A stretch of 64,000 bases of DNA from Apostichopus japonicus (taxonomy: Eukaryota > Echinodermata > Holothuroidea > Aspidochirotida > Stichopodidae), in contig NC_092567.1 in NCBI RefSeq assembly GCF_037975245.1, positions 167,501 to 231,500 of the forward strand, read 5' to 3'. How positions within the stretch are numbered: the stretch's first letter is position 1; each line of letters begins with the position of its first letter. Below the pieces are notes generated by a model. That model saw only the letters and a program-made list of their open reading frames with translations, ran no database searches and had not been told where the DNA came from. A program made the position numbers and the translations under genes. Positions 10,333 to 40,810 of this stretch are shown in pieces.

Positions 10333-10576
10333 TCATGAAGCTGATTCCTGGTGTCCATTTTTGTTCGGTCCATCGTTGTATTCTGCCTGTTCATTTGGCA
10401 CAATGGGACTAGCTTCTCGCTGGGACCTCTCTGGACTTTCACCCCTTGCCCCTCCCTCGTTGTTATCACGCCCCTTTGATGGAGATCTGCTCCTGTCTCG
10501 ACTCCTAGAGCGGCTGTTTCTCTCCCGGCTTCTGGATTTAGATCGACTTCTGTTCTCTCGTACAGGTGACCTGCTC
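10333..10576 (-). CDS. SR gene exon 8 (C-terminal RS domain, stop)
   Basis: The acceptor is TTCAAAG|GAGC and the exon enters in phase 2. It encodes residues 172-252: SRSPVRENRSRSKSRSRE, more RS dipeptides, then a non-RS tail rich in Asn, Glu, Gly and Pro ending NGHQESAS. TGA is at 10335-10333. About 7.8 kb of intron, mostly minisatellite, separates it from exon 7. Confidence 0.9.
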
Positions 10577-13500
10577 CTTTGAAGCAAACATAACATTATA
10601 CGTTACAATTACAAAAGATGAACACACCACGGCACGATTAATCTAATATCGCAATAATGGCATAGGGAATATAACCAGAATGAAAACATTTCATGGTTCC
10701 TTGCTGCTGCTCATTGATTAATCTAGTATGGCAGGGAATATAACCAGAATGAAAACATTTCATGGTTCCTTGCTGCTGCTCACTGATTAATCTAGTATGG
10801 CAGGGAATATAACCAGAATGAAAACATTTCATGGTTCCTTGATGCTGCTGCTCATTGATTAATCTAGTATGGCATAGGGAATATAACCAGAATGAAAACA
10901 TTTCATGGTTCCTTGCTGCTGCTCAATGATTAATCTAGTATGGCAGGGAATATAACCAGAATGAAAACATGGTTCCTTGCTGCTGCTGCTCATTGATTAA
11001 TCTAGTATGGCATAGGGAATATAACCAGAATGAAAACATTTCATGGTTCCTTGCTGCTGCTCATTGATTAATCTAGTATGGCATAGGATATATGACAAGA
11101 ATGAAAACATTTCATGGTTCCTTGCTGCTGCTCAATGATTAATCTAGTATGGCATAGGATATATAACCAGAATGAAAACATTTCATGGTTCCTTGCTGTT
11201 GCTCATTGATTAATCTAGTATGACAGGGAATATAACCAGAATGAAAACATTTCATGGTTCCTTGCTGCTGCTCAATGATTAATCTAGTATGGCATAGGGA
11301 ATATAACCAGAATGAAAACATGGTTCCTTGCTGCTGCTCATTGATTAATCTAGTATGGCATAGGGAATATAACCAGAATGAAAACATGGTTCCTTGCTGC
11401 TGCTCAATGATTAATCTAGTATGGCAGGGAATATAACCAGAATGAAAACATGGTTCCTTGCTGCTGCTGCTCATTGATTAATCTAGTATGGCATAGGGAA
11501 TATAACCAGAATGAAAACATTTCATGGTTCCTTGCTGCTGCTCATTGATTAATCTAGTATGGCATAGGATATATAACCAGAATGAAAACATTTCATGGTT
11601 CCTTGCTGCTGCTCAATGATTAATCTAGTATGGCATAGGATATATAACCAGAATGAAAACATGGTTCCTTACTGCTGCTCATTGATTAATCTAGTATGGC
11701 ATAGGATATATAACCAGAATGAAAACATTTCATGGTTCCTTGCTGCTGCTCATTGATTAATCTAGTATGGCAGGGAATATAACCAGAATGGAAACATTTC
11801 ATGGTTCCTTGCTGCTGCTCAATGATTAATCTAGTATGGCATAGGGAATATAACCAGAATGAAAACATTTCATGGTTCCTTGCTGCTGCTGCTCATTGAT
11901 TAATCTAGTATGGCATAGGGATATATAACCAGAATGAAAACATTTCATGGTTCCTTGCTGCTGCTCATTGATTAATCTAGTATGGCATAGGGAATATAAC
12001 CAGAATGAAAACATTTCATGGTTCCTTGCTGCTGCTCATTGATTAATCTAGTATGGGCATAGGGAATATAACCAGAATGAAAACATTTCATGGTTCCTTG
12101 CTGCTGCTCAATGATTAATCTAGTATGGCATAGGATATATAACCAGAATGAAAACATGGTTCCTTGCTGCTGCTCATTGATTAATCTAGTATGGCATAGG
12201 GAATATAACCAGAATGAAAACATGGTTCCTTGCTGCTGCTGCTCATTGATTAATCTAGTATGGCAGGGAATATAACCAGAATGAAAACATTTCATGGTTC
12301 CTTGCTGCTGCTGCTGATTGATTAATCTAGTATGGCATAGGATATATAACCAGAATGAAAACATTTCATGGTTCCTTGCTGCTGCTCATTGATTAATCTA
12401 GTATGGCAGGGAATATAACCAGAATGAAAACATTTCATGGTTCCTTGCTGCTGCTGCTCATTGATTAATCTAGTATGGCAGGGAATATAACCAGAATGAA
12501 AACATTTCATGGTTCCTTGCTGCTGCTCAATGATTAATCTAGTATGGCATAGGGAATATAACCAGAATGAAAACATTTCATGGTTCCTTGCTGCTGCTCA
12601 TTGATTAATCTAGTATGGCATAGGATATATAACCAGAATGAAAACATTTCATGGTTCCTTGCTGCTGCTCATTGATTAATCTAGTATGGCATAGGGAATA
12701 TAACCAGAATGAAAACATTTCATGGTTCCTTGCTGCTGCTCAATGATTAATCTAGTATGGCAGGGAATATAACCAGAATGAAAACATTTCATGGTTCCTT
12801 GCTGCTGCTCATTGATTAATCTAGTATGGCATAGGGAATATAACCAGAATGAAAACATGGTTCCTTGCTGCTGCTCAATGATTAATCTAGTATGGCAGGG
12901 AATATGACCAGAATGAAAACATTTCATGGTTCCTTGCTGCTGCTCATTGATTAATCTAGTATGGCATAGGGAATATAACCAGAATGAAAACATTTCATGG
13001 TTCCTTGCTGCTGCTCATTGATTAATCTAGTATGGCATAGGGAATATAACCAGAATGAAAACATGGTTCCTTGCTGCTGCTCATTGATTAATCTAGTATG
13101 GCAGGGAATATAACCAGAATGAAAACATGGTTCCTTGCTGCTGCTCATTGATTAATCTAGTATGGCAGGGAATATAACCAGAATGAAAACATTTCATGGT
13201 TCCTTGCTGCTGCTCATTGATTAATCTAGTATGGCATAGGATATATAACCAGAATGAAAACATTTCATGGTTCCTTGCTGCTGCTGCTCATTGATTAAGC
13301 TAGTATGGCAGGGAATATAACCAGAATGAAAACATTTCATGGTTCCTTGCTGCTGCTCAATGATTAATCTAGTATGGCATAGGGAATATAACCAGAATGA
13401 AAACATTTCATGGTTCCTTGCTGCTGCTCATTGATTAATCTAGTATGGCATAGGATATATAACCAGAATGAAAACATTTCATGGTTCCTTGCTGCTGCTC

Positions 13501-16500
13501 ATTGATTAATCTAGTATGGCATAGGGAATATAACCAGAATGAAAACATTTCATGGTTCCTTGCTGCTGCTCAATGATTAATCTAGTATGGCAGGGAATAT
13601 AACCAGAATGAAAACATTTCATGGTTCCTTGCTGCTGCTCATTGATTAATCTAGTATGGCATAGGGAATATAACCAGAATGAAAACATGGTTCCTTGCTG
13701 CTGCTCAATGATTAATCTAGTATGGCAGGGAATATAACCAGAATGAAAACATTTCATGGTTCCTTGCTGCTGCTCATTGATTAATCTAGTATGGCATAGG
13801 GAATATAACCAGAATGAAAACATTTCATGGTTCCTTGCTGCTGCTCATTGATTAATCTAGTATGGCATAGGGAATATAACCAGAATGAAAACATGGTTCC
13901 TTGCTGCTGCTCATTGATTAATCTAGTATGGCATAGGGAATATAACCAGAATGAAAACATGGTTCCTTGCTGCTGCTCATTGATTAATCTAGTATGGCAG
14001 GAAATATAACCAGAATGAAAACATTTTATGGTTCCTTGCTGCTGCTCATTGATTAATCTAGTATGGCATAGGATATATAACCAGAATGAAAACATTTCAT
14101 GGTTCCTTGCTGCTGCTGCTCATTGATTAATCTAGTATGGCAGGGAATATAACCAGAATGAAAACATGGTTCCTTGCTGCTGCTCATTGATTAATCTAGT
14201 ATGGCAGGGAATATAACCAGAATGAAAACATTTCATGGTTCCTTGCTGCTGCTCATTGATTAATCTAGTATGGCAGGGAATATAACCAGAATGAAAACAT
14301 TTCATGGTTCCTTGCTGCTGCTCATTGATTAATCTAGTATGGCATAGGGAATATAACCAGAATGAAAACATTTCATGGTTCCTTGCTGCTGCTGCTCATT
14401 GATTAATCTAGTATGGCATAGGGAATTTAACCAGAATGAAAACATGGTTCCTTGCTGCTGCTCATTGATTAATCTAGTATGGCATAGGGAATATAACCAG
14501 AATGAAAACATGGTTCCTTGCTGCTGCTCATTGATTAATCTAGTATGGCAGGGAATATAACCAGAATGAAAACATTTTATGGTTCCTTGCTGCTGCTCAT
14601 TGATTAATCTAGTATGGCATAGGATATATAACCAGAATGAAAACATTTCATGGTTCCTTGCTGCTGCTGCTCATTGATTAATCTAGTATGGCAGGGAATA
14701 TAACCAGAATGAAAACATGGTTCCTTGCTGCTGCTCATTGATTAATCTAGTATGGCAGGGAATATAACCAGAATGAAAACATTTCATGGTTCCTTGCTGC
14801 TGCTCATTGATTAATCTAGTATGGCAGGGAATATAACCAGAATGAAAACATTTCATGGTTCCTTGCTGCTGCTCATTGATTAATCTAGTATGGCATAGGG
14901 ATTATAACCAGAATGAAAACATTTCATGGTTCCTTGCTGCTGCTGCTCATTGATTAATCTAGTATGGCATAGGGAATTTAACCAGAATGAAAACATGGTT
15001 CCTTGCTGCTGCTCATTGATTAATCTAGTATGGCATAGGGAATATAACCAGAATGAAAACATGGTTCCTTGCTGCTGCTCATTGATTAATCTAGTATGGC
15101 AGGGAATATAACCAGAATGAAAACATTTCATGGTTCCTTGCTGCTGCTGATTGATTAATCTAGTATGGCATAGGATATATAACCAGAATGAAAACATTTC
15201 ATGGTTTCCTTGCTGCTGCTCATTGATTAATCTAGTATGGCATAGGGAATATAACCAGAATGAAAACATTTCATGGTTCCTTGCTGCTGCTCATTGATTA
15301 ATCTAGTATGGCAGGGAATATAACCAGAATGAAAACATTTCATGGTTCCTTGCTGCTGCTGCTCATTGATTAATCTAGTATGGCAGGGAATATAACCAGA
15401 ATGAAAACATTTCATGGTTCCTTGCTGCTGCTCAATGATTAATCTAGTATGGCATAGGGAATATAACCAGAATGAAAACATTTCATGGTTCCTTGCTGCT
15501 GCTCATTGATTAATCTAGTATGGCATAGGATATATAACCAGAATGAAAACATTTCATGGTTCCTTGCTGCTGCTCAATGATTAATCTAGTATGGCATAGG
15601 ATATATAACCAGAATGAAAACATTTCATTGCTGCTGCTCATTGATTAATCTAGTATGGAAGGGAATATAACCAGAATGAAAACATTTCATGGTTCCTTGC
15701 TGCTGCTGCTCATTGATTAATCTAGTATGGCAGGGAATATAACCAGAATGAAAACATGGTTCCTTGCTGCTGCTCATTGATTAATCTAGTATGGCAGGGA
15801 ATATAACCAGAATGAAAACATTTCATGGTTCCTTGCTGCTGCTCATTGATTAATCTAGTATGGCAGGGAATATAACCAGAATGAAAACATTTCATGGTTC
15901 CTTGCTGCTGCTCATTGATTAATCTAGTATGGCATAGGGAATATAACCAGAATGAAAACATTTCATGGTTCCTTGCTGCTGCTGCTCATTGATTAATCTA
16001 GTATGGCATAGGGAATTTAACCAGAATGAAAACATGGTTCCTTGCTGCTGCTCATTGATTAATCTAGTATGGCATAGGGAATATAACCAGAATGAAAACA
16101 TGGTTCCTTGCTGCTGCTCATTGATTAATCTAGTATGGCAGGGAATATAACCAGAATGAAAACATTTCATGGTTCCTTGCTGCTGCTGATTGATTAATCT
16201 AGTATGGCATAGGATATATAACCAGAATGAAAACATTTCATGGTTTCCTTGCTGCTGCTCATTGATTAATCTAGTATGGCATAGGGAATATAACCAGAAT
16301 GAAAACATTTCATGGTTCCTTGCTGCTGCTCATTGATTAATCTAGTATGGCAGGGAATATAACCAGAATGAAAACATTTCATGGTTCCTTGCTGCTGCTG
16401 CTCATTGATTAATCTAGTATGGCAGGGAATATAACCAGAATGAAAACATTTCATGGTTCCTTGCTGCTGCTCAATGATTAATCTAGTATGGCATAGGGAA

Positions 16501-19500
16501 TATAACCAGAATGAAAACATTTCATGGTTCCTTGCTGCTGCTCATTGATTAATCTAGTATGGCATAGGATATATAACCAGAATGAAAACATTTCATAGTT
16601 CCTTGCTGCTGCTCAATGATTAATCTAGTATGGCATAGGATATATAACCAGAATGAAAACATTTCATTGCTGCTGCTCATTGATTAATCTAGTATGGAAG
16701 GGAATATAACCAGAATGAAAACATTTCATGGTTCCTTGCTGCTGCTGCTCATTGATTAATCTAGTATGGCAGGGAATATAACCAGAATGAAAACATTTCA
16801 TGGTTCCTTGCTGCTGCTCAATGATTAATCTAGTATGGCATAGGATATATAACCAGAATGAAAACATGGTTCCTTGCTGCTGCTCATTGATTAATCTAGT
16901 ATGGCATAGGGAATATAACCAGAATGAAAACATTTCATGGTTCCTTGCTGCTGCTCATTGATTAATCTAGTATGGCATAGGATATATAACCAGAATGAAA
17001 ACATTTCATGGTTCCTTGCTGCTGCTCATTGATTAATCTAGTATGGCATAGGATATATAACCAGAATGAAAACATTTCATGGTTCCTTGCTGTTGCTCAT
17101 TGATTAATCTAGTATGACAGGGAATATAACCAGAATGAAAACATTTCATGGTTCCTTGCTGCTGCTCATTGATTAATCTAGTATGGCAGGGAATATAACC
17201 AGAATGAAAACATGGTTCCTTGCTGCTGCTCATTGATTAATCTAGTATGGCATAGGGAATATAACCAGAATGAAAACATGGTTCCTTGCTGCTGCTCAAT
17301 GATTAATCTAGTATGGCATAGGGAATATAACCAGAATGAAAACATGGTTCCTGACTGCTGCTCATTGATTAATCTAGTATGGCATAGGGAATATAACCAG
17401 AATGAAAACATGGTTTCTGACTGCTGCTCATTGATTAATCTAGTATGGCATAGGGAATATAACCAGAATGAAAGCATGGTTCCTTACTGCTGCTCATTGA
17501 TTAATCTAGTATGGTACAACAAGCTATGCTTGATTCCTTTACATACATGGTTTGGTTAATGATATCAGAAGCTAAAAACTTGCATTGGTGTAAATATGGC
17601 TACCATTGTAGTATTGGAACAGCACTATTGTGACATCAGTGTGAACTATAGGTTACTGGTTCATGCATAGCTCATGGAGAGAGTTGCTGTATTTCACATC
17701 AGTGTGAACTATAGGTTACTGGTTCATGCATAGCTCATGGAGAGAGCTGCTTAGCACTATTGTGACCTTAGTGTGAACTATAGGTTATTATACAACACCT
17801 AATTATATTCCGGCCATTTGATTGGTCAATTGCTCGTCGATTGCATGCAAAATCCGCTCTATTGCACGCTATGATCATAGAACCATGCGTTATGCTTTTT
17901 TGATAGCACTTTTTCAATGGTAAGAGAGCAGAGAAACCTGTCTGTTCAAAACAATCTGTTGCATGAGTGCATTTTACATCCAATTATATCCAAATTTGAA
18001 GGTGTTGTATAAAACAAATAATGAATGGTTTTCCATTCGTGCAATAGTGCAAATATTCCATTCGTTGAAAGATGTAATTTGTTCCATTCAACTCGGCTGC
18101 GCCTCGTTGAATGGAACATTCCATCTTTCAACTCATGAAATATTTGCACTATTGCACTCATAACCATTCATTATTTGTATACTGGTTCATGCATATCTCA
18201 TGGAGAGAGTTGCTTAGCACTATTGTGACATCAGTGTGAACTATAGGTTACTGGTTCATGCATGGCTCATGGAGAGAGTTGCTTAGCACTATTGTGACAT
18301 CAGTGTGAACTATAGGTTACTGGTTCATGCATAGCTCATGGAGAGAGTTGCTTCAAAACACAACCAGTTGCTTCTTACTTTGATCTAGATCTACGATGCG
18401 GGCTTTGTTTCCTTTCCCTGCTGATGCTACGATCTCTACTCCTGCTGCGATCTCTACTGTCACTTCTGTGTCTAGTTCGATCCCTGCTGCGACTTCGACT
18501 CCTGCTACGGCTGTATCTGAAAGTAGACCGTGGTGTAAATGTCTTTATTTGTTTCTGCAGTTGAAACATTTCTAAATCAATTGCATCATGAGTAGTAACA
18601 GTGTTACAAAAGCTATTGTACACAGAGAAGAGAAAATATATAGTAAAGAGAAAATAACAATTAAAACAGAAGGAGAAGAGGAGCAGAAAATATCTGCGGT
18701 GAATTCATGGGAAATGTACAGGGAAATGAGTGGTTTGTACACTGTTATCAACATCAACTAGAATTCATGGGAAATGTACAGGGAAATGAGTGGGTTGTAC
18801 ACTGTTATCAACATCAACTAGAATTCATGGGAAATGTACAGGGAAATGAGTGGGTTGTACACTGTTATCAACATCAACTAGAATTCATGGGAAATGTACA
18901 GGGAAATGAGTGGTTTGTACACTGTTATCAACATCAACTAGAATTCATGGGAAATGTACAGGGAAATGAGTGGGTTGTACACTGTTATCAACATCAACTA
19001 GAATTCATGGGAAATGTACAGGGAAATGAGTGGGTTGTACACTGTTATCAACATCAACTAGAATTCATGGGAAATGTACAGGGAAATGAGTGGTTTGTAC
19101 ACAGATTATGACGTTTCATTATCAACAGAGTCACTGATATTTAACATAAGCATTCTTAAAAGAAGTGTAGACAATGCTGAGTTGAGTATGTTGATGGTCT
19201 TGATTAGATTGTGCCTACTCTTTGTCAAGGAACAAAATACATTTTTATAGAAGCAAGTATGAGTTCTGCAACTATGTGTAACACTGAAACCCCATACTTC
19301 TCATTTGAAGACTGATTCTGTGTAACATTTATCTTCTAATGGTAATGCATTTCAAAAGGATGTCCCCTCTCAGGTTCTCCTTACCTTTCACATCTTGACA
19401 TCCACCTTCCCCACTCACCCTCAAATTTCTACATAAAATCCTGTCCACAGGCAAATCCAAGTTGGCAGTGAAAACTTATTCCTTGCCGCAGTGCTCGATA

Positions 19501-22500
19501 TTTAGAATAGTGAAATAATTCATCAACACAAATGTAAATGCTCACCTTCTTCTTGACCTGTGAAAAGAAAAATGATGAAAAAACAAAGAAATGTTTAATT
19601 TAAATAAGGATATTCCATAGTCAGTTCATCTTAAAGTTGCATTATTATGGCTAAGCCATGTAATATACAAAAACTGCATACTCCTCAATCTAACTCTCTG
19701 ATACTGTGGTTACAATTTAGATATTCCTACATCTAAAAGGGGGGGGGGGGGGTGGGTGACTTTAGGCAGAATTGAGTATTTATATGTAATAACTGTCCAA
19801 AAAAGTGAGGCAATAAAACTCTTCCGTTTTCCTGTTTAGTTTTGTGTTGCATCTAAGGGACTGACCTAATAGTTTGTGTTAGACTTTGTAGTCCAGTCAC
19901 TGTAATTGATGAGCCTCAGATGCATGAAGAGTTTTGTCTTCAATATCAATACAACCTGGCCTGCTCAGTGTTTCTAACAGTCTACAGCATATCAACATTA
20001 ATATTGTGCCTAAAATCATTCCTTAATGTAAACATCGTTTCTTATAATGCTGGATATTTGGTGTCTTACAAATGTTATGAAATGTTTCAGTATTCCATCT
20101 GTAAATAATGTATTACTTTATCATTCTTATTGCAACTTTGTTGGAATTATAAGAAGAAACCAGATGTTTTAAGGTATCTTTAAATATATTTATAGTTAGT
20201 ATCGTCCAACATTATGAAGACAATTAAAAGCAAATGCCAAGTTAGGTAACACTATTGTACACCTGCTGTTTCATATTTCACCCTCTTTGTATTTATGCTT
20301 CACTTGAAAAATACAGTTACATTAAGGAAAATACAGTTACATTAAGGAAAGTACTGTTACATTGTGGAAAATACTGTTACATTATGGAAAATACTGTTTC
20401 ATGAAGGAAAATGCTGTTACATTAAGGAAAATACTGTTACATTAAGGAAGGACCATTACACCAAGGCATGTATTGTTACACCAAGGAAAGTACTCCATAA
20501 AGCACTACTTTACCAGGATATTAATTTAATATAATTATGCAGAAAGAGTAATTATTTGCTTGACCAAGTGACAGGCATTTTCATAATTTTTAGATTAAAT
20601 CCTGTTTGGATTGAACACTATTGTTGCCAAATTAAATGTTAAAGTGAGTAAGATGTGTCAACCTAGGTTGGAGTGACTTATAAAGCAAAGTCAATGGCTG
20701 AATGCTCAGTTCAAAATGCTTTGTAAGATTTCTGTACTTTCTTGCTGAGAGAACTTATAAAGTTGTACTAAATTTGAGCTCAATGCCAGCAACTCACCTA
20801 TCACCACCACGCCAGCCACCACGACTCCCACCTCCTCCTACAGAAAAAAATCATGATCAAAGAAAACATTTTGAAACACACCAGAAAAGTAGCTTACATA
20901 ATGAAACAACAACCAAATTCCTCACCAAGGAGAGTGAAGTAATGCTAATGAGAGGGGCACAACAAGGGAGCCTTAATAGGAAATATTGACATACTGTAAT
21001 GTACCAAGAGGAAGAGAGATAAATGTAATAACTGGGACAAATCAGTGTTAAACATCATAACTAGCCTTAATAGTAAATATTGACATAATGTACCACAGGA
21101 AGAGAGATAAATGTTATAACTGGGACAAATCAGTGTTAAACATCATAACTAGCCTTAATAGCAAATATTGACATAATGTACCACAGGAAGAGAGATAAAT
21201 GTTATAACTGGGACAAATCAGTGTTAAACATCATAACTATTGTCTCTTGCTTTACAGTTTGCCAAAGTCTGTTCTCTACCTGGGAGTCTTGTTAATATGA
21301 CATGGTTTATTGCTTTCATGCAACAAAGAAAATTCCTTGGATGCATTTCAAAGTTCATTAATCCATATACTTTCATACATAGTTTAATATTTATCATGAA
21401 AAGCACCATGCTGCAAAGTATCTATAATATTTAGCCTGTTAGCTGTGATTAATCAAGAATATTACAAACTTTAAGTACAGTTATAATTAACATTCTTACG
21501 AGATCTTCCTCCAAAGCGACGGGCTTCCTCGCAATCTCTGGCAAAGTGACCAGGTTGATGGCAATTATAGCACTCATCCTCCCCTTGCTGAAAGCAAACA
21601 CAAGAAAATGAGCAAATCATGTCCTAGGGATATTCTATAGATTGAATGAGCAAATCATGTCCTAGGGATATTCTATAGATTAAATGAGCAAATCATGTCC
21701 TAGGGATATTCTATAGATTGAATGAGCAAATCATGTCCTAGGGATATTCTATAGATTGAATGAGCAAATCATGTCCTAAGGATATTCTATAGATTGAATG
21801 AGCAAATCATGTCCTAGGGATATTCTATAGATTGAATGAGCAAATCATGTCCTAAGGATATTCTATAGATTGAATGAGCAAATCATGAGTACTTGTTGTG
21901 ATCTTGCACTAACACTTGTATTCTAGCATTTGTCCCTGTTCTCGTTCTGGCCTATCGGTGTTTGTTCTCATACTCAGTGCATTTGAAAATTTATCTACTA
22001 GAGCCTTGTTCTAGTACTCATAATTTGGTAATTCTACTTGTACCTATGCTGTTATACTTATACCACACATCTGCTGAGAGGTATGTAATTCTACTTGTAC
22101 CTATGCTGTTATACTTATACCACACATCTGCTGAGAGGTATGTAATTCTACTTGTACCTATGCTGTTTTACTTATACCACACATCTGCTGAGAGGTATGT
22201 AATTCTACTTGTACCTATGCTGTTATACTTATACCACACATCTGCTGAGAGGTATGTAATTCTACTTGTACCTACGCTGTTATACTTATACCACACATCT
22301 GCTGAGAGGTATGTAATTCTACTTGTACCTACGCTGTTATACTTATACCACACATCTGCTGAGAGGTATGTAATTCTACTTGTACCTACGCTGTTATACT
22401 TATACCACACATCTGCTGAGAGGTATGTAATTCTACTTGTACCTACGCTGTTATACTTATACCACACATCTGCTGAGAGGTATGTAATTCTACTTGTACC

Positions 22501-25500: not shown

Positions 25501-28500
25501 ACTTATACCACACATCTGCTGAGAGGTATGTAATTCTACTTGTACCTATGCTGTTATACTTATACCACACATCTGCTGAGAGGTATGTAATTCTACTTGC
25601 ACCTATGCTGTTATACTTATGCCACACATCTGCTGAGAGGTATGTAATTCTACTTGTACCTATGCTGTTATACTTATGCCACACATCTGCTGAGAGGTAT
25701 GTAATTCTACTTGTACCTATGCTGTTATACTTATGCCACACATCTGCTGAGAGGTATGTATTTCTACTTGTACCTATGCCTGTTATACTTATGCCACACA
25801 TCTGCTGAGAGGTATGTAATTCTACTTGTACCTATGCTGTTATACTTATGCCACACATCTGCTGAGAGGTATGTAATTCTACTTGTACCTATGCTGTTAT
25901 ACTTATATCACACATCTGCTGAGAGGTATGTAATTCTACTTGTACCTATGCTGTTATACTTATACCACACATCTGCTGAGAGGTATGTAATTCTACTTGT
26001 ACCTACGCTGTTATACTTATACCACACATCTGCTGAGAGGTATGTAATTCTACTTGTACCTATGCTGTTATACTTATACCACACATCTGCTGAGAGGTAT
26101 GTAATTCTACTTGTACCTATGCTGTTATACTTATACCATACATCTGCTGAGAGGTATTACACTTTGCATATGGAAATATATTTGTACAGACTGATGCATT
26201 GACAGTGTATCAAATTAGATAATGATGAATGTTGTTAGCAAAACAAAAATACACTCAAGACAGAAATGATTACAGCAAATATGTATCCTTGCACATTGCA
26301 CTGTAATGATGGATTGTACATCTTACAAAGCAAGCAATTGGTTTCCATGCCATATTTAACTTTCATCAATTTCATTTTTTATGAAGGTCATGCTCAAATG
26401 TGAATTCTAATTTCATGAATTATCAGCTCTTGTAAAAATTGAGAAAATATCTGATAGAACTCTGTTTTTTTTTATAGCAAGATCTTTTGAAGAATTTTCT
26501 GTTGCTATTTCAGCACCTTGAAAGCTTTTATAATAGTCCATTGTCAAGATAATTTGACCCTCAGTATCCAAGCAATGCATTAAAGGATAGAGATAACTGC
26601 CTCTAGAGCCCTAAAGACCCTCAGTATCCAAGCAATGCATTAAAGGATAGAGATAAATGCCTCTAGAGTCCTAAAGACCCTCAGTATCCAAGCAATGCAT
26701 TAAAGGATAGAGATAACTGCCTCTAGAGCCCTAAAGACCCTCAGTATCCAAGCAATGCATTAAAGGATAGAGATAAATGCCTCTAGAGTCCTAAAGACCC
26801 TCAGTATCCAAGCAATGCATTAAAGGATAGAGATAACTGCCTCTAGAGTCCTAAAGACCCTCAGTATCCAAGCAATGCATTAAAGGATAGAGATAACTGC
26901 CTCTAGAGCCCTAAAGACCCTCAGTATCCAAGCAATGCATTAAAGGATAGAGATAACTGCCTCTAGAGCCCTAAAGACCCTCAGTATCCAAGCAATGCAT
27001 TAAAGGATAGAGATAACTGCCTCTAGAGTCCTAAAGACCCTCAGTATCCAAGCAATGCATTAAAGGATAGAGATAACTGCCTCTAGAGTCCTAAAGACCC
27101 TCAGTATCCAAGCAATGCATTAAAGGATAGAGATAACTGCCTCTAGAGTCCTAAAGACCCTCAGTATCCAAGCAATGCATTAAAGGATAGAGATAACTGC
27201 CTCTAGAGCCCTAAAGACCCTCAGTATCCAAGCAATGCATTAAAGGATAGAGATAACTGCCTCTAGAGCCCTAAAGACCCTCAGTATCCAAGCAATGCAT
27301 TAAAGGATAGAGATAACTGCCTCTAGAGCCCTAAGGACCCTCAGTATCCAAGCAATGCATTAAAGGATAGAGATAACTGCCTCTAGAGCCCTAAAGACCC
27401 TCAGTATCCAAGCAATGCATTAAAGGATAGAGATAACTGCCTCTAGAGCCCTAAAGACCCTCAGTATCCAAGCAATGCATTAAAGGATAGAGATAACTGC
27501 CTCTAGAGTCCTAAAGACCCTCAGTATCCAAGCAATGCATTAAAGGATAGAGATAACTGCCTCTAGAGTCCTAAAGACCCTCAGTATCCAAGCAATGCAT
27601 TAAAGGATAGAGATAACTGCCTCTAGAGTCCTAAGGAGCTTTGGATTCGAAAGGTTCTACTCTGCATCTAAGGTTACAATTGAAATTTGAAGGCAGTTTT
27701 TACATCATCATATTTATAAATCTACCACTTTAAGTCCAAAAATTCCTAACGTTTAGGTTATGGAATAAACTTTGGAGATGTGCAAGTGAAAAACTGTATG
27801 ACATTAACTTTGAGGGATATGATTTTTTTTAACTAAATGGTTTCATCACTGGGTTATTATTATTTTGGTTAAAACAGCATTATTTTGTTAGCTTCTTGAA
27901 TTAATCTTAGCATATTTTGAGAATCTGATAATCCTACAACAGGTCAGCCTCACTTTTCCAGTTTTATTCAAATGTCCAGGAAAAAGTAGAAACTTTATGC
28001 CAGGTCAGTAACTACTGTTTGCATAACTTACTAGAACTTAGATATTGAAAGAGTGTCTGGGTGACAATTTCTTCAAAAATTTATTCCAGTTAATCTATAT
28101 TTTCTTCAAACAATATCTCACAGAATGCCTTGGTTTGATCATTCAATCTTATTTGGGGAAATTTTTGTCTGGTTTGGTACAATTGCAAAATATTGCAGAC
28201 CAACTCAATTCAAAAGCTGCTTAAAGGTGACATCTATGTTTACAATTATCATCACAGCAGTCATTTTTGTTCTACATTTTAACAATACTTACAGATCCTC
28301 TCTTGGGGCCGCGAGCCCATTCAACTACGATCCTCTGGCCTTCTATCTCCCGGTCATTTTCGTATCTCATGGCATCCTGAAGTGCAATATAAATGTCAGA
28401 GCTTGTAAATGCTTCTTTATAAGGTATACCATACTTCTAATTGGTAACCTTCAAATGTAACAAACAATTTAAAGAAACACATACATAGACCCAAATGTAA

Positions 28501-31500: not shown

Positions 31501-34500
31501 GATATTAACTACTCTGTTGTTTTAATTACCCTACTTCCCTCCCAGAAAATATGTGAACGATCTCTACCCTCCATCTCGACCGCTGGACAGGTCTTGCATC
31601 AAAAAGACTTGGCTTTTGGCATGTTTGGTTGGAAAGGCTCCAACAGGCTGTCTTTTTGTCTAACGGTAAGCGCAAAACTTAGGCTCAACAGGGAGCTTCT
31701 GGTCACCCACGGTAACATACGGCCCGTTTGAAAGGTCTGTCGGTTTCGGGTTATTTGCCATTTTGTCAGACAATTTGGCAATGAGAGGAAATGTGGCTGA
31801 GCAGGTAAGTCAGGCGTGGCGTAGATTGGCTTAGCAATCAAACAGGGTAGCAAAAGGTAGAACTTTGGCACTCTGTGTGTCAAAAATTGTTCAATAAAGA
31901 GTAAATATTCAAGAAAATAAAAATCACTGAAGTGTGATAAAGATGATAATTTCTTCTAATATTGCACCCTCATATCTAATGATAAATATCTTGTTGCAAA
32001 GGATACCAATAATTCATGCAAAATGGACTTAGGCAACCGTTCCACACAAAAAGTGTGTCATACACTATAGATCTTTAAAATAGTAAGATATATTTCAAAA
32101 TGTAAACCTTGAAAATATGGATAAAGTACAATATGAAACTTAGCATGCATGTACTTTTACAAAATATGTTTAAAATCTGCTATGACATTGGCTCAACTGT
32201 TACAACCCAAGCAGTGTCCTTTTGTATGGTGAAAACAAAGTAAACATTTTCAACATTTTATGATTCATAGATATGTTAGATGTAGGTTCATAAATTGTTA
32301 CTATTTCCTGAGAATATGTTCTGAGATTTTCTAACTTAAACCCAATGTTTGCATTAGATGTGTCTACTTAGCTTCACAAACATAATGTCTTGGCTGTGCT
32401 AGGTCTCGGCATTACTCAATCTATGGAGAAATTTGATGAGTCTGTTGTGGTCTGAATGGTACAGTATTGATAACTGCTTGAGTAGTATGGTTTCCTATGA
32501 GACAATCTGTTGTGGTCTGAATGGTACAGTATTGATCACTGCTTGAGTAGTATGGTTTCCTATGAGACAATCTGTTGTGGTCTGAATGGTACAGTATTGA
32601 TAACTGCTTGAGTAGTATGGTTTCCTATGAGACAATCTGTTGTGGTCTGAATGGTACAGTATTGATAACTGCTTGAGTAGTATGGTTTCCTATGAGACAA
32701 TCTGTTGTGGTCTGAATGGTACAGTATTGATAACTGCTTGAGTAGTATGGTTTCCTATGAGACAATCTGTTGTGGTCTGAATGGTACAGTATTGATAACT
32801 GCTTGAGTAGTATGGTTTCCTATGAGACAATCTGTTGTGGTCTGAATGGTACAGTATTGATAACTGCTTGAGCAGTGTGGTTTCCTATGAGACAATCTGT
32901 TGTGGTCTGAATGGTACAGTATTGATAACTGCTTGAGGAGTATGGTTTCCTATGAGACAATCTGTTGTGGTCTGAATGGTACAGTATTGATAACTGCTTG
33001 AGCAGTATGGTTTCCTATGAGACAATCTGTTGTGGTCTGAATGGTACAGTATTGATAACTGCTTGAGCAGTATGGTTTCCTATGAGACAATCTGTTGTGG
33101 TCTGAATGGTACAGTATTGATAACTGCTTGAGCAGTATGGTTTCCTATGAGACAATCTGTTGTGGTCTGAATGGTACAGTATTGACAACTGCTTGAGCAG
33201 TATGGTTTCCTATGAGACAATCTGTTGTGGTCTGAATGGTACAGTATTGACAACTGCTTGAGCAGTATGGTTTCCTATGAGACAATCTGTTGTGGTCTGA
33301 ATGGTACAGTATTGATAACTGCTTGAGCAGTATGGTTTCCTATGAGACAATCTGTTGTGGTCTGAATGGTACAGTATTGATAACTGCTTGAGCAGTATGG
33401 TTTCCTATGAGACAATCTGTTGTGGTCTGAATGGTACAGTATTGATAACTGCTTGAGCAGTATGGTTTCCTATGAGACAATCTGTTGTGGTCTGAATGGT
33501 ACAGTATTGATAACTGCTTGAGCAGTGTGGTTTCCTATGAGACAATCTGTTGTGGTCTGAATGGTACAGTATTGATAACTGCTTGAGCAGTGTGGTTTCC
33601 TATGAGACAATCTGTTGTGGTCTGAATGGTACAGTATTGATAACTGCTTGAGCAGTGTGGTTTCCTATGAGACAATCTGTTGTGGTCTGAATGGTACAGT
33701 ATTGATAACTGCTTGAGTAGTCTGGTTTCCTATGAGACAATCTGTTGTGGTCTGAATGGTACAGTATTGATAACTGCTTGAGTAGTATGGTTTCCTATGA
33801 GACAATCTGTTGTGGTCTGAATGGTACAGTATTGATAACTGCTTGAGTAGTATGGTTTCCTATGAGACAATCTGTTGTGGTCTGAATGGTACAGTATTGA
33901 TAACTGCTTGAGTAGTCTGGTTTCCTATGAGACAATCTGTTGTGGTCTGAATGGTACAGTATTGATAACTGCTTGAGTAGTATGGTTTCCTATGAGACAA
34001 TCTGTTGTGGTCTGAATGGTACAGTATTGATAACTGCTTGAGTAGTATGGTTTCCTATGAGACAATCTGTTGTGGTCTGAATGGTACAGTATTGATAACT
34101 GCTTGAGTAGTGTGGTTTCCTATGAGACAATCTGTTGTGGTCTGAATGGTACAGTATTGATAACTGCTTGAGTAGTATGGTTTCCTATGAGACAATCTGT
34201 TGTGGTCTGAATGGTACAGTATTGATAACTGCTTGAGTAGTATGGTTTCCTATGAGACAATCTGTTGTGGTCTGAATGGTACAGTATTGATAACTGCTTG
34301 AGTAGTCTGGTTTCCTATGAGACAATCTGTTGTGGTCTGAATGGTACAGTATTGATAACTGCTTGAGTAGTATGGTTTCCTATGAGACAATCTGTTGTGG
34401 TCTGAATGGTACAGTATTGATACCTGCTTGAGTAGTATGGTTCCTATGAGACACTCTGTTGTGGTCTGAATGGTACAGTATTGATGGGATTATCCTCCTT

Positions 34501-37500
34501 TATTATAGATGCATTGCAGCAACAATGAATCGTCTATGAGAACTTACTTAACGAGTTACTTCGTTACTCATGAGTAGTTGATGCAAACCGATCTAATCAG
34601 ACTTACCTGTGCATCTCTCTTGTATTGGTAATCAACAAAGGCATATGCTGCAAGATAAAGAAAACAACTGATATTATACAAACTTATTCCAGAAAAAGAA
34701 CTGGTATAATTTCTCCTTCTAAATGCTTTGATCAATTAATTCAATTTCTATAGTTTAAACTTGTTTATTAACTGTCTCATTTGTTTTTCATTTCAGAATA
34801 AAAGAAATACAAACCAATCAAAGAAAAAACAACTTTTCAATTTCTTACAAACTGACCGACAGAGGTGAAGTGGCTAAAATTTGTTAACGGTGGTCCATAA
34901 ATTTCTATGGCATTACACGGTCTATTTGGTTGCTCTACTGTCACAGTTAACACTGCATTTGCACTGCAAATACTGTCACTGAAGCCTTTTGGTATTGTAC
35001 TGTAGATTTGCTCGAAGTAACATCTGTTAACCTTCCCTTAACCTGTTAATCTGTTAACCATCTGTTAAAATCACCCTCACAGTCGACCTGTACATTTGCT
35101 ACTAAAAACAGATAAATAACAAACAATAGAGTTGATCTACTTGGGTCACATTTTTGTAGTGCTCAGTAGTTAATCCTCTTCAAAGTACAATGGAATGTGA
35201 TCATAGTTAATTGTATATTTCAGCTTTGATCTTCCTCATCAATAATCTGAAAGTTAACCTGCTAACGTAACTTAACATTGCACTACAGAGACATACCTAT
35301 AACACTAGTCTGCACAGTAAGTCTTCAGAAAGTAATTTCAACTTATTCATCAGCCAATATCCACTTAAGTAGCACTGTTGATGCCAGGATAACAGTTAGG
35401 AGTATTGGGGTGTCAATTGGGACACATACATACATGTATGTGAGTAAATGCTACATACAGTATTTACCAGCGCCATGCACTAAGAAGGAAAAGTGAAGTA
35501 AATCCCAACATAAAAACTGGTTTTCACCGAGCTTTAACTGTGAACTTGATCACTTCTTTGTCACACAAACTAAAAAGGATTTTCTTTAATCAACAATGCT
35601 TGCAAGGAATAATTTAGTGTTCCAATTTTTGTGTAGCAGTTATAAAGGGTTCGGAACTTTGTCTAGTACTATACAGACTCTGTGTAGTAGAACTGCTATA
35701 ACTTGCGATAAATGGCAATATGCAATGAAAATGTTGGTACTCACCCATGCCAGTTCCTGTGATACAAAATGAAAGAGAATTTGTCACAAAGTCATACATG
35801 TGCAAAAAACATATTTTTTCAATGTTAGGCCTAGGCAAGGTTGTCATCCTGAAGGGATTTAGCTTCCTACATCCCTAAGGCTTCCCACGTATCAATGGCC
35901 ATTGAAGTACTTCACACTTAGTATTACTAAAAACAAGGGTACTCCTGTAAGTGACAGCTTGTCAGTCATAATGTCAAATTAACACCCACATTTTTTTCTC
36001 CAAATTTGACAAACAGGCTACAGTTAGACAGACTAGAAGACAGATGTAGATCATACTCATAGGGTTAAACTTAGGCCACCACCTACAGCAAGAAAGTTAA
36101 GATACAGTAGCCATATGGACTGTTTTAGGATCAAGCAAGCATGGCAAAAAAATTGCTGCAACTTAAAGCCCATTCTGAAATAGCAAGCTTGACTGTATTT
36201 TTGAAGTGTTTTGTTATATCCTTTTTATAAATTATTATCTTGTGCTTAATAATATAATTGTTCCAACTAAACTTACTTGTAACAAGATATTGAATAGTGG
36301 TGAAATTAATGCATTAGGGACAGGTAGCCATCTTACGGGAAAAGGCACTCCTACAAGTCATATTAAAGGGTGTGAAGAATCGCGCACAAAGAAACGTCTC
36401 ATGCCAGTAATCTGACCTAGTTTCGAATGAGGTGTGACAGAAATGTTAGACACCACCATCGATCCCAGAAAATACACACACAGCTTGCTACCGTCGGTAA
36501 TTAGACAATAGTGTACAGTCGATACATACAGCGACGTTCAATACCCACAACACAGCGTACATAGCAGCGTGGAAATCTCAGGCTTAGATAAAAGATAAAA
36601 AGGTATCACCTTTCATTACTGTCTGCATTTTGGGCTAAACTGCAGAATACCCCGCTACTTAAAATATTTTTATAGGTAGGCTACGAGGTACGCAGTGGAA
36701 AAATATTTATAGATAGCCTACGCGGTACGCAGACCTTCATAGAAAATTAATAAACTTAAATTAAAACCCTTCCTTAAAACGTAAACCCAATAGTTGATGT
36801 TTCGTTCTTTATACTTCGAAAAATAATGGTTTTTGCTCAAATCACAGTGATCGTAACTTTACTATATGGGCAATTCCACGGTTACTCACGTTACATTTTT
36901 GAAGACTTTGGCTTACAAATGGTCAGATAGCTCCACCATTCATTAATTTGAATGACTGCTCTCTATGCATTGATTGGGTAACAAATTTACCTGAACATTG
37001 GTAAAAACACAATTTGATTATCTTGTTTCTTGTAGGATATAGGTACATGAAAGTGTCGGTTACTCACGTTACATTTGAAAATCACCCTGATGCCAAAAAT
37101 AAACTTCATTCAAAAAGTGTCCTCATACTGGATATATTTGAAGAAAATGAATTCATGTTTTTTGGACCTTAGGTGATGATACAAATACTGAACACAATCA
37201 AAATCACATCTGGTTTCCTGTCTCGGTGAAAATGAGGCATTCACCGGTTACTCACGTTACGGTTACTCACGTTACAGTTTGTCCACCTATACAATACATA
37301 GGGAATCAAGAGTCTGTGAGGAACTTGCTGCTAGGAAACACCCATATATCAGTGGAATTGACATTTTGAACATCTTCTCCAGTGTAATTCAATAATATTA
37401 CAATCAAAAAGAGATATATACCATGTCCTTTTGAGATAATGCATGAATCATATCTTCACAAATCGGCAGCAAATTCTGGATTGTAATTAAGTTTTATTTG

Positions 37501-40500: not shown

Positions 40501-40810
40501 TGGAATAGAATTGGTTGGTGTGGAGGGTGGGGATTGTTGCTGATAGTGTTTTCGTAAATTGTAGTGACACCAGCTAGGCAAAGTATAGGCCTAACGTTAG
40601 GCCTTTACTTGGTTATGTTAGGTTAGGAATAAAGCTTGGTGAACGTTAGGCTACACCGCTTGACTATCCTATCCCTACTTTCCGTTAAATTCTCTCACCA
40701 TATTTTACGTCACATCTCACAAGTCGACCATACGCACCGAATATGTCCTGAACATGTCTTTCCTTAACATTTTTACTAAGTCTCCCGACAAATAAGTTGG
40801 CAGACGACAT
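10333..40810 (-). CDS. SR-type splicing factor: one RRM, CCHC zinc knuckle, RS domain
   Basis: Eight coding exons in transcription order: 40810-40699, 34647-34607, 28376-28293, 21587-21500, 20837-20798, 19557-19546, 18516-18379 and 10576-10333. They total 759 nt, or 252 aa plus TGA. All introns are GT-AG and every phase agrees. Residues 5-79 form an RRM, with RNP2-like LFVGRL (6-11), RNP1-like YAFVDY (39-44) and an IVVEWARGPKRG end. Residues 85-98 form a CX2CX4HX4C zinc knuckle (C85, C88, H93, C98). A short RGGG/GGWRGG linker follows, then an RS domain from about 122 with long SR/RD runs and an acidic/Asn-rich tail. SR proteins of this plan (SRSF7/9G8 and RSZ types) bind exonic enhancers and recruit the spliceosome in the nucleus. 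The RRM wording (IGRLS-like start, EWARGP end) is closer to the SRSF4/5/6 first RRM, so I do not assign an orthologue symbol. Confidence 0.93.
10637..17514. repeat. 6.9-kb minisatellite, ~66-74-bp unit, about 100 copies
   Basis: The plus-strand unit starts with ATTGATTAATCTAGTATGGC and ends with CCTTGCTGCTGCTC. Units differ by a 2-bp TA indel after GGCA, a 5-bp indel in ACATTTCATGG versus ACATGG, a variable number of GCT triplets, and scattered substitutions. Blocks recur at ~830 bp (12676-12993 versus 13506-13823) and at 1039 bp (14880-15481 versus 15919-16520), so the array has grown by multi-unit duplications. The many short open frames it creates on both strands are artefacts. Confidence 0.97.
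17620..18353. repeat. 69-bp minisatellite interrupted by an insertion
   Basis: About six copies of a 69-bp unit carry the core CTATAGGTTACTGGTTCATG. Full-length spacing is seen at 18234 and 18303, and the left copies (17639, 17702, 17771) are slightly shorter. The third copy is split at GGTTA/CTGG by the element at 17788-18179 and resumes at 18182. Confidence 0.9.
17788..18179. mobile_element. 392-bp foldback/MITE-like insertion with TA flanks
   Basis: The insertion lies inside a minisatellite unit, so the empty site is known from neighbouring copies. TA occurs on both sides (17786-17787 and 18180-18181). The left part has inverted repeats TTATACAACACCT and AGGTGTTGTATAA (to about 18012). 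The right part (about 18017-18178) is a long imperfect palindrome built from CAAATAATGAATGG and its complement. It has no coding capacity. TA duplication would fit Tc1/mariner or PIF-like mobilisation, but the family is not identified. Confidence 0.7.
18379..18516 (-). CDS. SR gene exon 7 (RS domain core)
   Basis: This 138-nt exon has phase 2 at both ends and encodes residues 126-171: a dense RS/RD repeat (SRSRSRSRDRTRHR...) followed by ERKQSPHRRSRS. Being a multiple of three with matching phases, it can be skipped without a frameshift. Reading through its donor gives AAG TAA immediately, so an unspliced transcript would end at 18375 with a 172-aa product. Confidence 0.9.
18702..19101. repeat. 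60-bp minisatellite, seven copies
   Basis: Seven near-identical 60-bp units start at the GAATTCATGG motif, in SR intron 6. A single T/G variant (TGGTTTG or TGGGTTG) runs T-G-G-T-G-G-T along the array, a 180-bp higher-order pattern. The open frame through it is an artefact of the 60-bp period. Confidence 0.95.
19546..19557 (-). CDS. SR gene exon 6 (12-nt microexon)
   Basis: The acceptor is TTTTCACAG and the donor is GTGAGC, enclosing GTCAAGAAGAAG in phase 2. It adds RSRR at the start of the RS domain. Its length and symmetrical phases make it optional without frameshift. Exon 5 (40 nt) cannot join exon 7 in frame unless its own phase is kept, and this exon preserves that phase. Confidence 0.75.
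20311..20490. repeat. 20-bp tandem repeat, about nine copies
   Basis: Units resemble ATACTGTTACATTAAGGAAA, with increasing divergence at the right end. The array lies in SR intron 5. Confidence 0.9.
20798..20837 (-). CDS. SR gene exon 5 (RGG/GGW linker)
   Basis: This 40-nt exon has acceptor TTCTGTAG and donor GTGAGT. It encodes RGGGSRGGWRGGD, a Gly/Arg-rich hinge between the zinc knuckle and the RS domain. It enters in phase 1 and leaves in phase 2. Confidence 0.85.
20970..21239. repeat. ~88-bp tandem repeat, three copies
   Basis: Units start at GCCTTAATAG at 20970, 21064 and 21152. The first is slightly longer and more diverged. The array lies in SR intron 4. Confidence 0.92.
21500..21587 (-). 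CDS. SR gene exon 4 (CCHC zinc knuckle)
   Basis: This 88-nt exon encodes QGEDECYNCHQPGHFARDCE and then EARRFGGRS. The CX2CX4HX4C pattern is complete (C85, C88, H93, C98), with the usual aromatic residues after the first Cys and after the His. Such knuckles bind single-stranded RNA in SRSF7-type proteins. Confidence 0.93.
21608..21886. repeat. 38-bp minisatellite, seven and a half copies
   Basis: Units start every 38 bp from 21608 (21646, 21684, and so on to 21874) with ATGAGCAAATCATGTCCTA. They differ only by single substitutions. The array lies in SR intron 3, just upstream of exon 4 in transcript order. Confidence 0.95.
22028..26156. repeat. 4.1-kb minisatellite, 57-bp unit, about 72 copies
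   Basis: The unit begins GTAATTCTACTTGTACCTAT and ends CACACATCTGCTGAGAG. Variants include TATGTATTTC for TATGTAATTC, CTACGC for CTATGC, TTATGCC for TTATACC, and an occasional 5-bp ACAGT-type insertion. A rare variant (GTTTTACTT for GTTATACTT) recurs 342 bp apart (23021 and 23363), which is six units, showing block duplication. Because 57 is a multiple of three and the unit lacks stops in some frames, it is open for 784 codons on plus and up to 289 on minus. Both are artefacts. Confidence 0.97.
26559..27634. repeat. 60-bp minisatellite, 18 copies
   Basis: Almost perfect 60-bp units begin CCCTCAGTATCCAAGCAATG. Variable sites are ACTGC/AATGC and AGCCC/AGTCC. Homogeneity is very high, so the array is young or actively homogenised. 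It lies in SR intron 3. Confidence 0.97.
28293..28376 (-). CDS. SR gene exon 3 (second half of RRM)
   Basis: This 84-nt, phase-0 exon encodes DAMRYENDREIEGQRIVVEW followed by ARGPKRGS, the alpha-2/beta-4 part of the RRM with the SR-typical VEWARGP ending. The donor is GTAAGT. Confidence 0.93.
28377..34606 (-). other. SR gene intron 2 (6.2 kb)
   Basis: From 28377 to 32440 I see unique AT-rich intron with no supported exon. The open frames near 29694-30059 (plus) and 31599-31883 (minus) have no recognisable protein and no splice context. The rest is the 65-bp array at 32441-34486. Confidence 0.7.
32441..34486. repeat. 2.0-kb minisatellite, 65-bp unit, 31 copies
   Basis: Units begin TCTGTTGTGGTCTGAATGGT every 65 bp. 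The last is truncated and one unit lacks one T. Variants cluster: AGTAGTATGG in the first and last thirds, AGCAGTATGG or AGCAGTGTGG in the middle. This suggests local block expansion. Confidence 0.97.
34607..34647 (-). CDS. SR gene exon 2 (RNP1 strand)
   Basis: This 41-nt exon has acceptor ATCTTGCAG and donor GTAAGT. It encodes A38 to Q51, AYAFVDYQYKRDAQ, the RNP1-like beta-3 strand of the RRM with two exposed aromatics. Confidence 0.93.
37696..37899 (-). pseudogene. C-terminal remnant of a transposon protein, frameshifted
   Basis: The reading frame includes MYPGVIEANGDQNDVQVSVM and WKWPNPRDKIFYPRR, then changes frame: the adjacent frame gives a plausible ILITKLDAPTLANNRGHF continuation. This looks like the small tail domain of proteins carried by uncharacterised metazoan DNA transposons. 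It is separated from the N-terminal part at 38023-38769 by a degenerate stretch, so this copy cannot make a full protein. Confidence 0.6.
38023..38769 (-). pseudogene. N-terminal/central remnant of the transposon protein
   Basis: This 248-codon open frame is very basic at the start (MKKIQQEARRVATRRRVSSY, then Lys/Arg/Ala-rich helices around RVCDRLPKTPHRRKAV). Next comes a Cys/His-containing part, LSNKLPHNVCMCRYHENFMY. The final ~35 residues are probably out of frame, because the overlapping frame (37929-38201) reads more like the expected continuation. It lies inside the 2.6-kb terminal-inverted-repeat element and is presumed to be its transposase-related protein. I see no intact DDE/D catalytic core, so much of the catalytic region is likely deleted. 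Confidence 0.6.
40699..40810 (-). CDS. SR gene exon 1 (start, first half of RRM)
   Basis: ATG at 40810-40808 is the first in-frame Met before LFVGRL. The exon encodes MSSANLFVGRLSKNVKERHV and continues QDIFGAYGRLVRCDVKY, then one base (phase 1). The start fits SR proteins, which place the RNP2 strand within ten residues of the N-terminus. Confidence 0.93.

What the first reader, a model, noticed from the sequence alone, without database searches (positions are those of the whole stretch)
10333..40810. One SR splicing-factor gene carries a large minisatellite in most of its introns
Exon mapping places nine separate tandem arrays inside this gene's introns 3 to 7 and intron 2. Unit lengths are about 70, 69, 60, 20, 88, 38, 57, 60 and 65 bp. 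Together they make up about 15 kb of a 30-kb gene, while the two neighbouring genes have only minor duplications. The unit sequences are unrelated, so the arrays arose independently. A gene-specific tendency to expand 57-70-bp units is unusual. It might reflect local replication or recombination behaviour, or tolerance or selection of long introns in an autoregulated splicing gene. The structure is seen in the sequence; the cause is inference.
Basis: partly seen in the sequence, partly recalled or inferred. Interest (0 to 1): 0.75.

Follow-up and report, generated by a model that had tools for sequence, protein, structure and literature searches.

The report
Splicing-factor gene stuffed with intronic minisatellites
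A gene for an RNA-splicing protein really is half made of repeated DNA in its introns, but such arrays are common in this genome and the next-door sister gene has some too, so this looks like a dense patch of ordinary repeat growth rather than a proven special property of the gene.

Summary
The gene (minus strand, 8 exons, 252 aa, RRM + zinc knuckle + RS tail) has nine tandem-array families in 6 of its 7 introns, 15.5 kb of 29.7 kb of intron. Units are unrelated to each other.

The reading as a gene-specific tendency is weakly supported. Arrays cover 15.8% of 39 interior pieces and 28.8% of 18 pieces taken 200 kb from other contig starts; this gene lies 178-208 kb from its contig start. A diverged sister gene next door carries three further arrays. 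The largest array (6.9 kb, 71-bp unit) has a relative on another contig, beside a dispersed element that supplies ~49 bp of the unit. Two arrays make up 71% of the array bases. Against this, the locus stays an outlier: six other RRM-gene stretches have 2.4%.

Best explanation: chance minisatellite birth and growth in an array-prone genome. I found no support for a splicing role.

The most interesting by-product is in the sister gene: a 21-copy array whose unit carries an exon end, its 5' splice site and an acceptor-like sequence, like amphioxus 'mirages' (PMC3087553).

The parts
10333..10576 (-). exon 8 (RS domain, C terminus, stop)
   Evidence: joined CDS in frame, AG before
18379..18516 (-). 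exon 7 (RS domain)
19546..19557 (-). exon 6, 12-nt microexon
   Evidence: flanked by AG and GT and keeps the frame; not confirmed by RNA
20798..20837 (-). exon 5 (Gly/Arg-rich)
21500..21587 (-). exon 4 (CCHC zinc knuckle)
28293..28376 (-). exon 3 (end of RRM)
34607..34647 (-). exon 2 (middle of RRM)
40699..40810 (-). exon 1 (start codon, start of RRM)
10657..17514 (.). intron 7: 71-bp unit x 99, 92% match; repeated multi-unit blocks inside; unit shared with an array on C19
17633..17751 (.). intron 7: fragment of the 69-bp array, 1.9 copies
17790..18180 (.). 391-bp dispersed sequence with inverted repeats between the two parts of the 69-bp array (limits set by eye)
18180..18353 (.). intron 7: 69-bp unit x 2.5, ends 25 nt from the exon 7 donor
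18701..19102 (.). intron 6: 60-bp unit x 6.7
   Evidence: genome matches only here
20308..20449 (.). intron 5: 20-bp unit x 7.1
   Evidence: not searched in the genome
20969..21239 (.). intron 4: 88-bp unit x 3.0
   Evidence: genome match only here
21607..21887 (.). intron 3: 38-bp unit x 7.4, ends 19 nt from the exon 4 acceptor
   Evidence: not searched in the genome
22028..26157 (.). intron 3: 57-bp unit x 72, 19 unit variants; open frame on + strand is a by-product of a stop-free unit of 3n length
   Evidence: close matches only here
26556..27634 (.). intron 3: 60-bp unit x 18
   Evidence: genome matches only here
32441..34485 (.). intron 2: 65-bp unit x 31.5
   Evidence: genome matches only here

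Best explanation
This is a dense cluster of ordinary intronic minisatellites in a genome that makes them readily, in a stretch 178-208 kb from its contig start. Each array starts from a short duplication of whatever sequence is there (or, for the 71-bp array, from unit DNA shared with an array on C19). It then grows by replication slippage and unequal exchange between units. Introns tolerate this as long as splice sites stay intact. Shown: array anatomy, unrelated units, high background density, different arrays in the paralogue, repeated blocks inside the 71-bp array. Inferred: the growth mechanism, the youth of the arrays, neutrality, and that position contributes to the density.
For: Background by one rule (period >=15, length >=100, copies >=2.5): arrays cover 15.8% of 39 readable interior 3-kb pieces (14 of 39 hold one; the 40th piece, L037, was all N and left out) and 28.8% of 18 2-kb pieces at 200 kb from contig starts (11 of 18). 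Nine arrays in 30.5 kb compare with 17 in 117 kb of interior sample, about 4.4 expected (Poisson P about 0.04, hand calculation). The base excess comes mostly from two arrays (10,988 of 15,501 bp). In the 57-bp array neighbouring units are slightly more alike than distant ones (0.982 vs about 0.975); the 71-bp array shows repeated multi-unit blocks and identity peaks at lags 12 and 15. The paralogue's three arrays have other units, so arrays turn over. In the 57-bp array the commonest variable columns change the amino acid of the open frame, so it does not look like a protein gene.
Against: Six stretches of about 10 kb at other RRM genes hold only 2.4% arrays (0 to 4.2%), so genes of this kind are not usually filled like this. 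Resampling interior pieces as independent reaches the gene's 50% in 0.18% of trials (0 of 100,000 if the three all-satellite pieces are dropped); with the 200-kb pieces 1.05% (1e-5 without the two that are array throughout). The ends-versus-interior contrast is not significant (permutation p 0.088). Five of eight other C7 pieces at 20-163 kb hold no array by the rule, and the rest of the window (33.5 kb) only 612 bp. The neighbour-likeness expected of slippage is not seen in the 60-bp (intron 3) and 82-bp arrays, and in the 65-bp array identity rises again at long lags.
Confidence: 0.7

Rival explanations
1. The gene pair (this SR gene and its paralogue) is a local hotspot that spawns tandem repeats because of some replication, transcription or recombination property.
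For: Both genes hold several unrelated arrays: 9 families in this gene, 3 arrays in the paralogue. Other RRM-gene stretches hold few (2.4%). The other 33.5 kb of the window has only 612 bp.
Against: Single pieces as rich or richer occur elsewhere: C7 at 20 kb (66%) and 100 kb (58%), and several at 200 kb of other contigs. The paralogue's 15.7% over 16 kb equals the interior mean. The locus was picked because it looked extreme.
Confidence: 0.17
2. The arrays are kept because they regulate splicing of an autoregulated SR gene, as long introns, binding arrays for SR protein, or interacting introns.
For: SR genes are widely known to autoregulate (recalled). Arrays come within 19 nt of an acceptor and 25 nt of a donor. 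Human TERT intron 6 VNTR length is linked to splicing (PMC11830802, listing with start of abstract) and the C. elegans minisatellite CeRep25B is enriched beside multiple splicing decisions (PMC4039745, passages).
Against: Units are unrelated in sequence and in reverse complement, so the introns do not share one array motif. Intron 1 has none. The paralogue's arrays differ. Donor-like hexamers in the arrays lie almost all on the antisense strand (4.58 against 0.26 per kb), but with only nine independent units this says little. Poison exons were not looked for and no RNA was available.
Confidence: 0.06
3. Copy numbers or whole arrays are assembly artefacts.
For: No reads were available; the 4.1-kb and 6.9-kb arrays in particular could be misassembled.
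Against: Contigs of 19-46 Mb (the lengths printed), TTAGGG arrays present (places listed on C1, 43,033 matches in all), no N in the window, unit variants in irregular order. Arrays under about 2 kb are short for long reads (general knowledge).
Confidence: 0.05

Closest known systems
Intronic minisatellites / VNTRs, e.g. genes rich in VNTRs near human chromosome ends (PTPRN2, DLGAP2; PMC7608644, passages); also a 27-bp intron 3 minisatellite in an abalone TSSK1-like gene (PMC6905558, passages)
   Same: Many arrays of units longer than 15 bp in one gene near a chromosome end; in human the number depends on gene length and position.
   Different: The human ones stressed there are GC-rich (>60%); these lie in DNA of about 34-38% GC. 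Polymorphism not measured here. The gene here is much shorter than those human genes (recalled), with a large array fraction.
Amphioxus 'mirages', minisatellite-like duplications of intron-exon boundaries (PMC3087553, passages)
   Same: The paralogue's 82-bp x 21 array repeats an exon end with its donor, and most units carry AG/GT signals.
   Different: None of the nine families in the gene of the finding spans an exon boundary. The amphioxus globin gene BflGb6 has 6 and 3 units of 150-160 bp in its two haplotypes, BflGb9 a duplicate of 157 bp; Adh3 units are 10-72 bp.
Tandem arrays built from parts of dispersed elements (review PMC9659126, search listing with start of abstract only)
   Same: About 49 bp of the 71-bp unit also occurs as dispersed single copies, and the C19 array runs on one side into such an element.
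   Different: The short C7 flanks searched (73 and 118 bp) match none of nine element loci, so how the array came there is unknown.

Membership tests
minisatellite (VNTR-type tandem array) | head-to-tail units of about 10-100 bp in arrays of 0.1 to some kb | tested here: met
   nine families
minisatellite (VNTR-type tandem array) | copy number varies between individuals | not testable with these tools
   one assembly only
minisatellite (VNTR-type tandem array) | unit largely private to its locus | tested here: met
   6 of the 7 units searched: 57, 65, 60, 60, 69 and 88 bp have close matches only here (the 57-bp unit has weak 67-79% matches on C9 and C16). The 71-bp unit is not private (C19 array). 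20- and 38-bp units not searched. The tool warns that weak or very common matches can be missed
mirage (exon-intron boundary array), for the gene of the finding | unit spans an exon-intron boundary | tested here: not met
   its arrays stop 19 nt or more from every exon
mirage (exon-intron boundary array), for the paralogue's 82-bp array in L041 | unit spans an exon-intron boundary | tested here: met
   last 33 nt of exon 3 and GTAAGT in the unit; by pattern count 21 donors (the gene's own one included), 20 ACAG acceptors, 10 perfect acceptor-33 nt-donor units
SR protein | RRM followed by an arginine/serine-rich domain | tested here: met
   RRM_1 43.6 bits, zf-CCHC 26.1 bits; first 108 aa match an SR splicing factor 6 variant in the PDB, E 4.7e-17; RS tail read in the CDS
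autoregulated SR gene | poison exon or other autoregulated splicing | not testable with these tools
   no RNA data, no related animal genomes; not looked for in sequence

The most novel reading that the evidence does not exclude
In the adjacent paralogue the 82-bp x 21 array works as a bank of mini-exons: most units offer an acceptor (TTGTTACAG), a 33-nt in-frame exon end (VEWAHGPKRGF) and a donor (GTAAGT), so alternative use would lengthen the end of the RRM by multiples of 11 residues or create new introns. More generally, this SR gene pair would be a place where tandem duplication can be watched generating splice sites and introns.
Probability: 0.07. Interest if true: 0.75.

Novelty: new member of a known kind. 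Interest (0 to 1): 0.36.

Why it matters
It gives a first base rate for judging array-rich genes in this genome: half-repeat introns are a clear excess, but arrays are common there. The sister gene's exon-boundary array is a clean natural case for the old question whether tandem duplication of splice sites makes new introns and exons, and RNA reads could settle it.

Tried and rejected
Coding reading of the 804-aa open frame in the 57-bp array: rejected. A stop-free unit of 3n length gives it automatically, long frames also run on the other strand, and its commonest variable columns are amino-acid changing.

Common origin of the units and a shared intron-pairing motif: not supported (both orientations).

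Whole-genome TRF scan: not possible, since the genome gives no file; I sampled it. Limits of the samples: the 40 interior positions were drawn at random from 1 Mb up to the highest RRM hit on 20 contigs, so not from the whole genome; the 200-kb sample is one fixed position on each of 18 contigs. The six RRM-gene stretches were picked by me as runs of same-strand hits some 10-30 kb long, at most 10 kb of each taken from a lower hit; I did not show that each is one gene, and other such runs were not taken.

Subtelomere explanation: only suggestive (p 0.088). TRF reports the first 1.5 kb of C7 as a 148-bp-period repeat, not a TTAGGG array, so I say 'contig start', not telomere.

Species: not identified. 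Orthologues in related animals: no suitable collection. Literature: a search for minisatellite + arginine-rich splicing factor + introns gave one paper, on TRA2B, not of this kind by its listing; one for mirages gave only PMC3087553; others gave general papers, of which I saw listings and, for those cited, passages. This is too little to claim that nothing is in print.
Full report
WHAT IS THERE. The window is G000:C7:167501-231500 of a 671.6-Mb genome in 35 contigs; TTAGGG arrays are present, with listed places near the start of C1. The gene of the finding lies on the minus strand. Joining eight exons gives a 759-nt frame coding for 252 residues with all seven introns GT...AG. The protein has an RRM (43.6 bits) and a CCHC zinc knuckle (26.1 bits), followed by a long RS tail; the best match of its first 108 residues among solved structures is an arginine/serine-rich splicing factor 6 variant (E 4.7e-17). 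Exon 6 has only 12 nt and rests on frame and splice signals alone.

THE ARRAYS. TRF confirms nine unit families in this gene: 71 bp x 99, 69 bp (split), 60 bp x 6.7, 20 bp x 7, 88 bp x 3, 38 bp x 7, 57 bp x 72, 60 bp x 18 and 65 bp x 31.5. They lie in introns 2 to 7, none in intron 1, and cover 15,501 of 29,719 intron bases, 92% of intron 7 and 82% of intron 3. Two arrays, the 71-bp and the 57-bp, hold 10,988 of these bases. The arrays approach but do not touch exons: 19 nt from the exon 4 acceptor (38-bp array) and 25 nt from the exon 7 donor (69-bp array) are the closest.

ARE THE UNITS RELATED, AND ARE THEY LOCAL? Twelve units, nine here and three of the paralogue, were compared in both orientations; one of 66 pairs beat all 200 shuffles and three were reached by two, near what chance gives. 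Seven of the nine units were searched in the whole genome. The 65, 60 (intron 3), 60 (intron 6), 69 and 88-bp units match only here; the 57-bp unit has only weak matches (67-79%) elsewhere, on C9 and C16. The 20- and 38-bp units were not searched. The 71-bp unit is different: a second array of 25.8 copies sits on C19, and of 401 first-look candidates 40 were scored, of which 38 are single matches of 43-53 bp spread over many contigs. Nine of these 38 were read: they share a block of about 40-49 bp beginning AACCAGAATG, and five of them align to each other over 487-850 bp in the longest piece, as members of a dispersed repeat family. The C19 array passes on one side straight into this kind of element (84% over 118 bp to L067), while the short C7 flanks (73 and 118 bp) match none of the nine. 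So the largest array was probably not grown from intron 7's own sequence (inference); how it reached C7 is unknown.

HOW THE ARRAYS GROW. Unit maps: in the 57-bp array (72 units, 19 variants) neighbours are 98.2% identical and units 3 or more apart about 97.5%. In the 65-bp array identity falls from 98.9% at lag 1 to 97.2% at lag 13 but rises again to 98.5% at lag 25. The 60-bp array of intron 3 and the paralogue's 82-bp array show no trend. The 71-bp array (100 units, 41 variants) has whole blocks repeated, with identity peaks at lags 12 and 15 units. Slippage and unequal exchange would leave such patterns; that is inference. The 57-bp array's 804-aa open frame does not look like a gene: its commonest variable columns change the residue (I/F, M/T, Y/C).

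IS IT UNUSUAL? One rule for all samples: period >=15, length >=100, copies >=2.5. Interior sample: 40 pieces of 3 kb, one all N and left out; 14 of 39 hold an array, 17 arrays in all, 12 of them with 18-81-bp units; mean cover 15.8%, or 8.8% without three pieces that are satellite throughout. Pieces of 2 kb at 200 kb from the start of 18 other contigs: 11 of 18 hold an array, mean 28.8%. C7 itself at 20-163 kb: 4,897 of 24,000 bases (500 of them N), all in three of eight pieces. Five C7 pieces at 270-453 kb: 237 of 15,000 bases. Six stretches at other RRM genes: 1,407 of 59,833 bases, 2.4%. The gene: 15,382 of 30,478, 50%. Resampling pieces as if independent gives 50% in 0.18% of trials from the interior set and 1.05% from the 200-kb set; without the pieces that are array throughout, 0 of 100,000 and 1e-5. 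But it was chosen for looking extreme, the number of arrays is only about twice expectation (9 against 4.4), and the genome holds some 22,000 blocks of this size. The end-versus-interior difference alone is not significant (p 0.088).

THE SISTER GENE. Beyond the window's right edge, on the same strand, lies a diverged paralogue with matching RRM, CCHC and RS exons (about C7:231.7-246.1 kb; Pfam on a partial protein). Its intron numbers below are by likeness to the first gene. It carries a 39/78-bp array in intron 7, a 37-bp array in intron 2 and an 82-bp x 21 array at the start of intron 3, with units unrelated to those of the first gene but for one borderline pair. The arrays therefore came after the duplication or have been replaced since (inference). 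The 82-bp unit is found only there. It contains the last 33 nt of exon 3 with the donor GTAAGT, and the copies are preceded by TTGTTACAG. By pattern count 21 donors (the gene's own included) and 20 acceptors are intact, 10 units are a perfect acceptor-33 nt-donor, and 15 of 17 matched inserts are 33 nt long and in frame. This is the structure called 'mirage' in amphioxus globin and Adh genes: repeats spanning exon-intron boundaries, many with AG/GT signals, reported not to disturb regular splicing, and proposed as a source of intron gain (PMC3087553, passages). Intron gain by tandem duplication is also described in PMC4974935 (passages). Whether any unit here is spliced in cannot be told without RNA.

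WHAT IT MOST LIKELY IS. A dense cluster of intronic minisatellites in an array-prone genome, grown by the usual turnover and tolerated because splice sites are spared. In human, genes with the most VNTRs are likewise long and, for the two leading ones, near chromosome ends (PMC7608644, passages). Shown: anatomy, unrelated units, background density, paralogue arrays, the C19 relative. Inferred: mechanism of growth, lack of function, effect of position. Intronic repeats can affect splicing elsewhere (PMC4039745, passages; PMC11830802, start of abstract), but nothing I found points to it here: units share no motif, intron 1 is free, and the sister gene's arrays differ.

VERDICT. Observation confirmed; interpretation partly supported. 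It is a strong example of a known kind, with one by-product, the exon-boundary array next door, that deserves RNA data.

Noticed in passing
L041:5021-6751 (C7:236521-238251, just right of the window): 82-bp x 21 array in the paralogous SR gene; unit includes the last 33 nt of exon 3, its donor GTAAGT and an upstream TTGTTACAG: a mirage-type array of possible mini-exons.
   Followed up: partly
L063:438-2247 (C19:30998438-31000247): Second array of the 71-bp unit, 25.8 copies, passing on one side into a dispersed element that shares about 49 bp with the unit.
   Followed up: partly
window 17790-18180: 391-bp dispersed sequence with inverted repeats between the two parts of the 69-bp array; of 898 first-look candidates 40 were scored, and these matched along nearly the whole length at 96-100%.
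   Followed up: partly
window about 36640-40160 (intron 1): Probable transposable element: inverted-looking ends (AGAATACCC), several copies of the motif GGTTACTCACGTTAC and of GTACCGCGTAGCC-like blocks, and a 265-aa open frame on the minus strand (38023-38820). Seen by eye only.
   Followed up: no
window 43122-43613, minus strand: 163-aa open frame that reads like the end of a LINE-type reverse transcriptase (recalled resemblance, not searched).
   Followed up: no
C7:270001-353000 (L052-L055): Four pieces 20-40 kb apart have near-equal GC (0.43) and the same 42 bp of low-stringency repeat cover, as if part of one large tandem array of long units.
   Followed up: no
window 8087-8341: 18-bp x 14 array beyond the 3' end of the gene, open in several frames because the unit has 3n length.
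   Followed up: no
C7:1-1500 (L043): The first 1.5 kb of the contig is a repeat of 148-bp period (GC 0.52) by TRF, not reported as a TTAGGG telomere.
   Followed up: no
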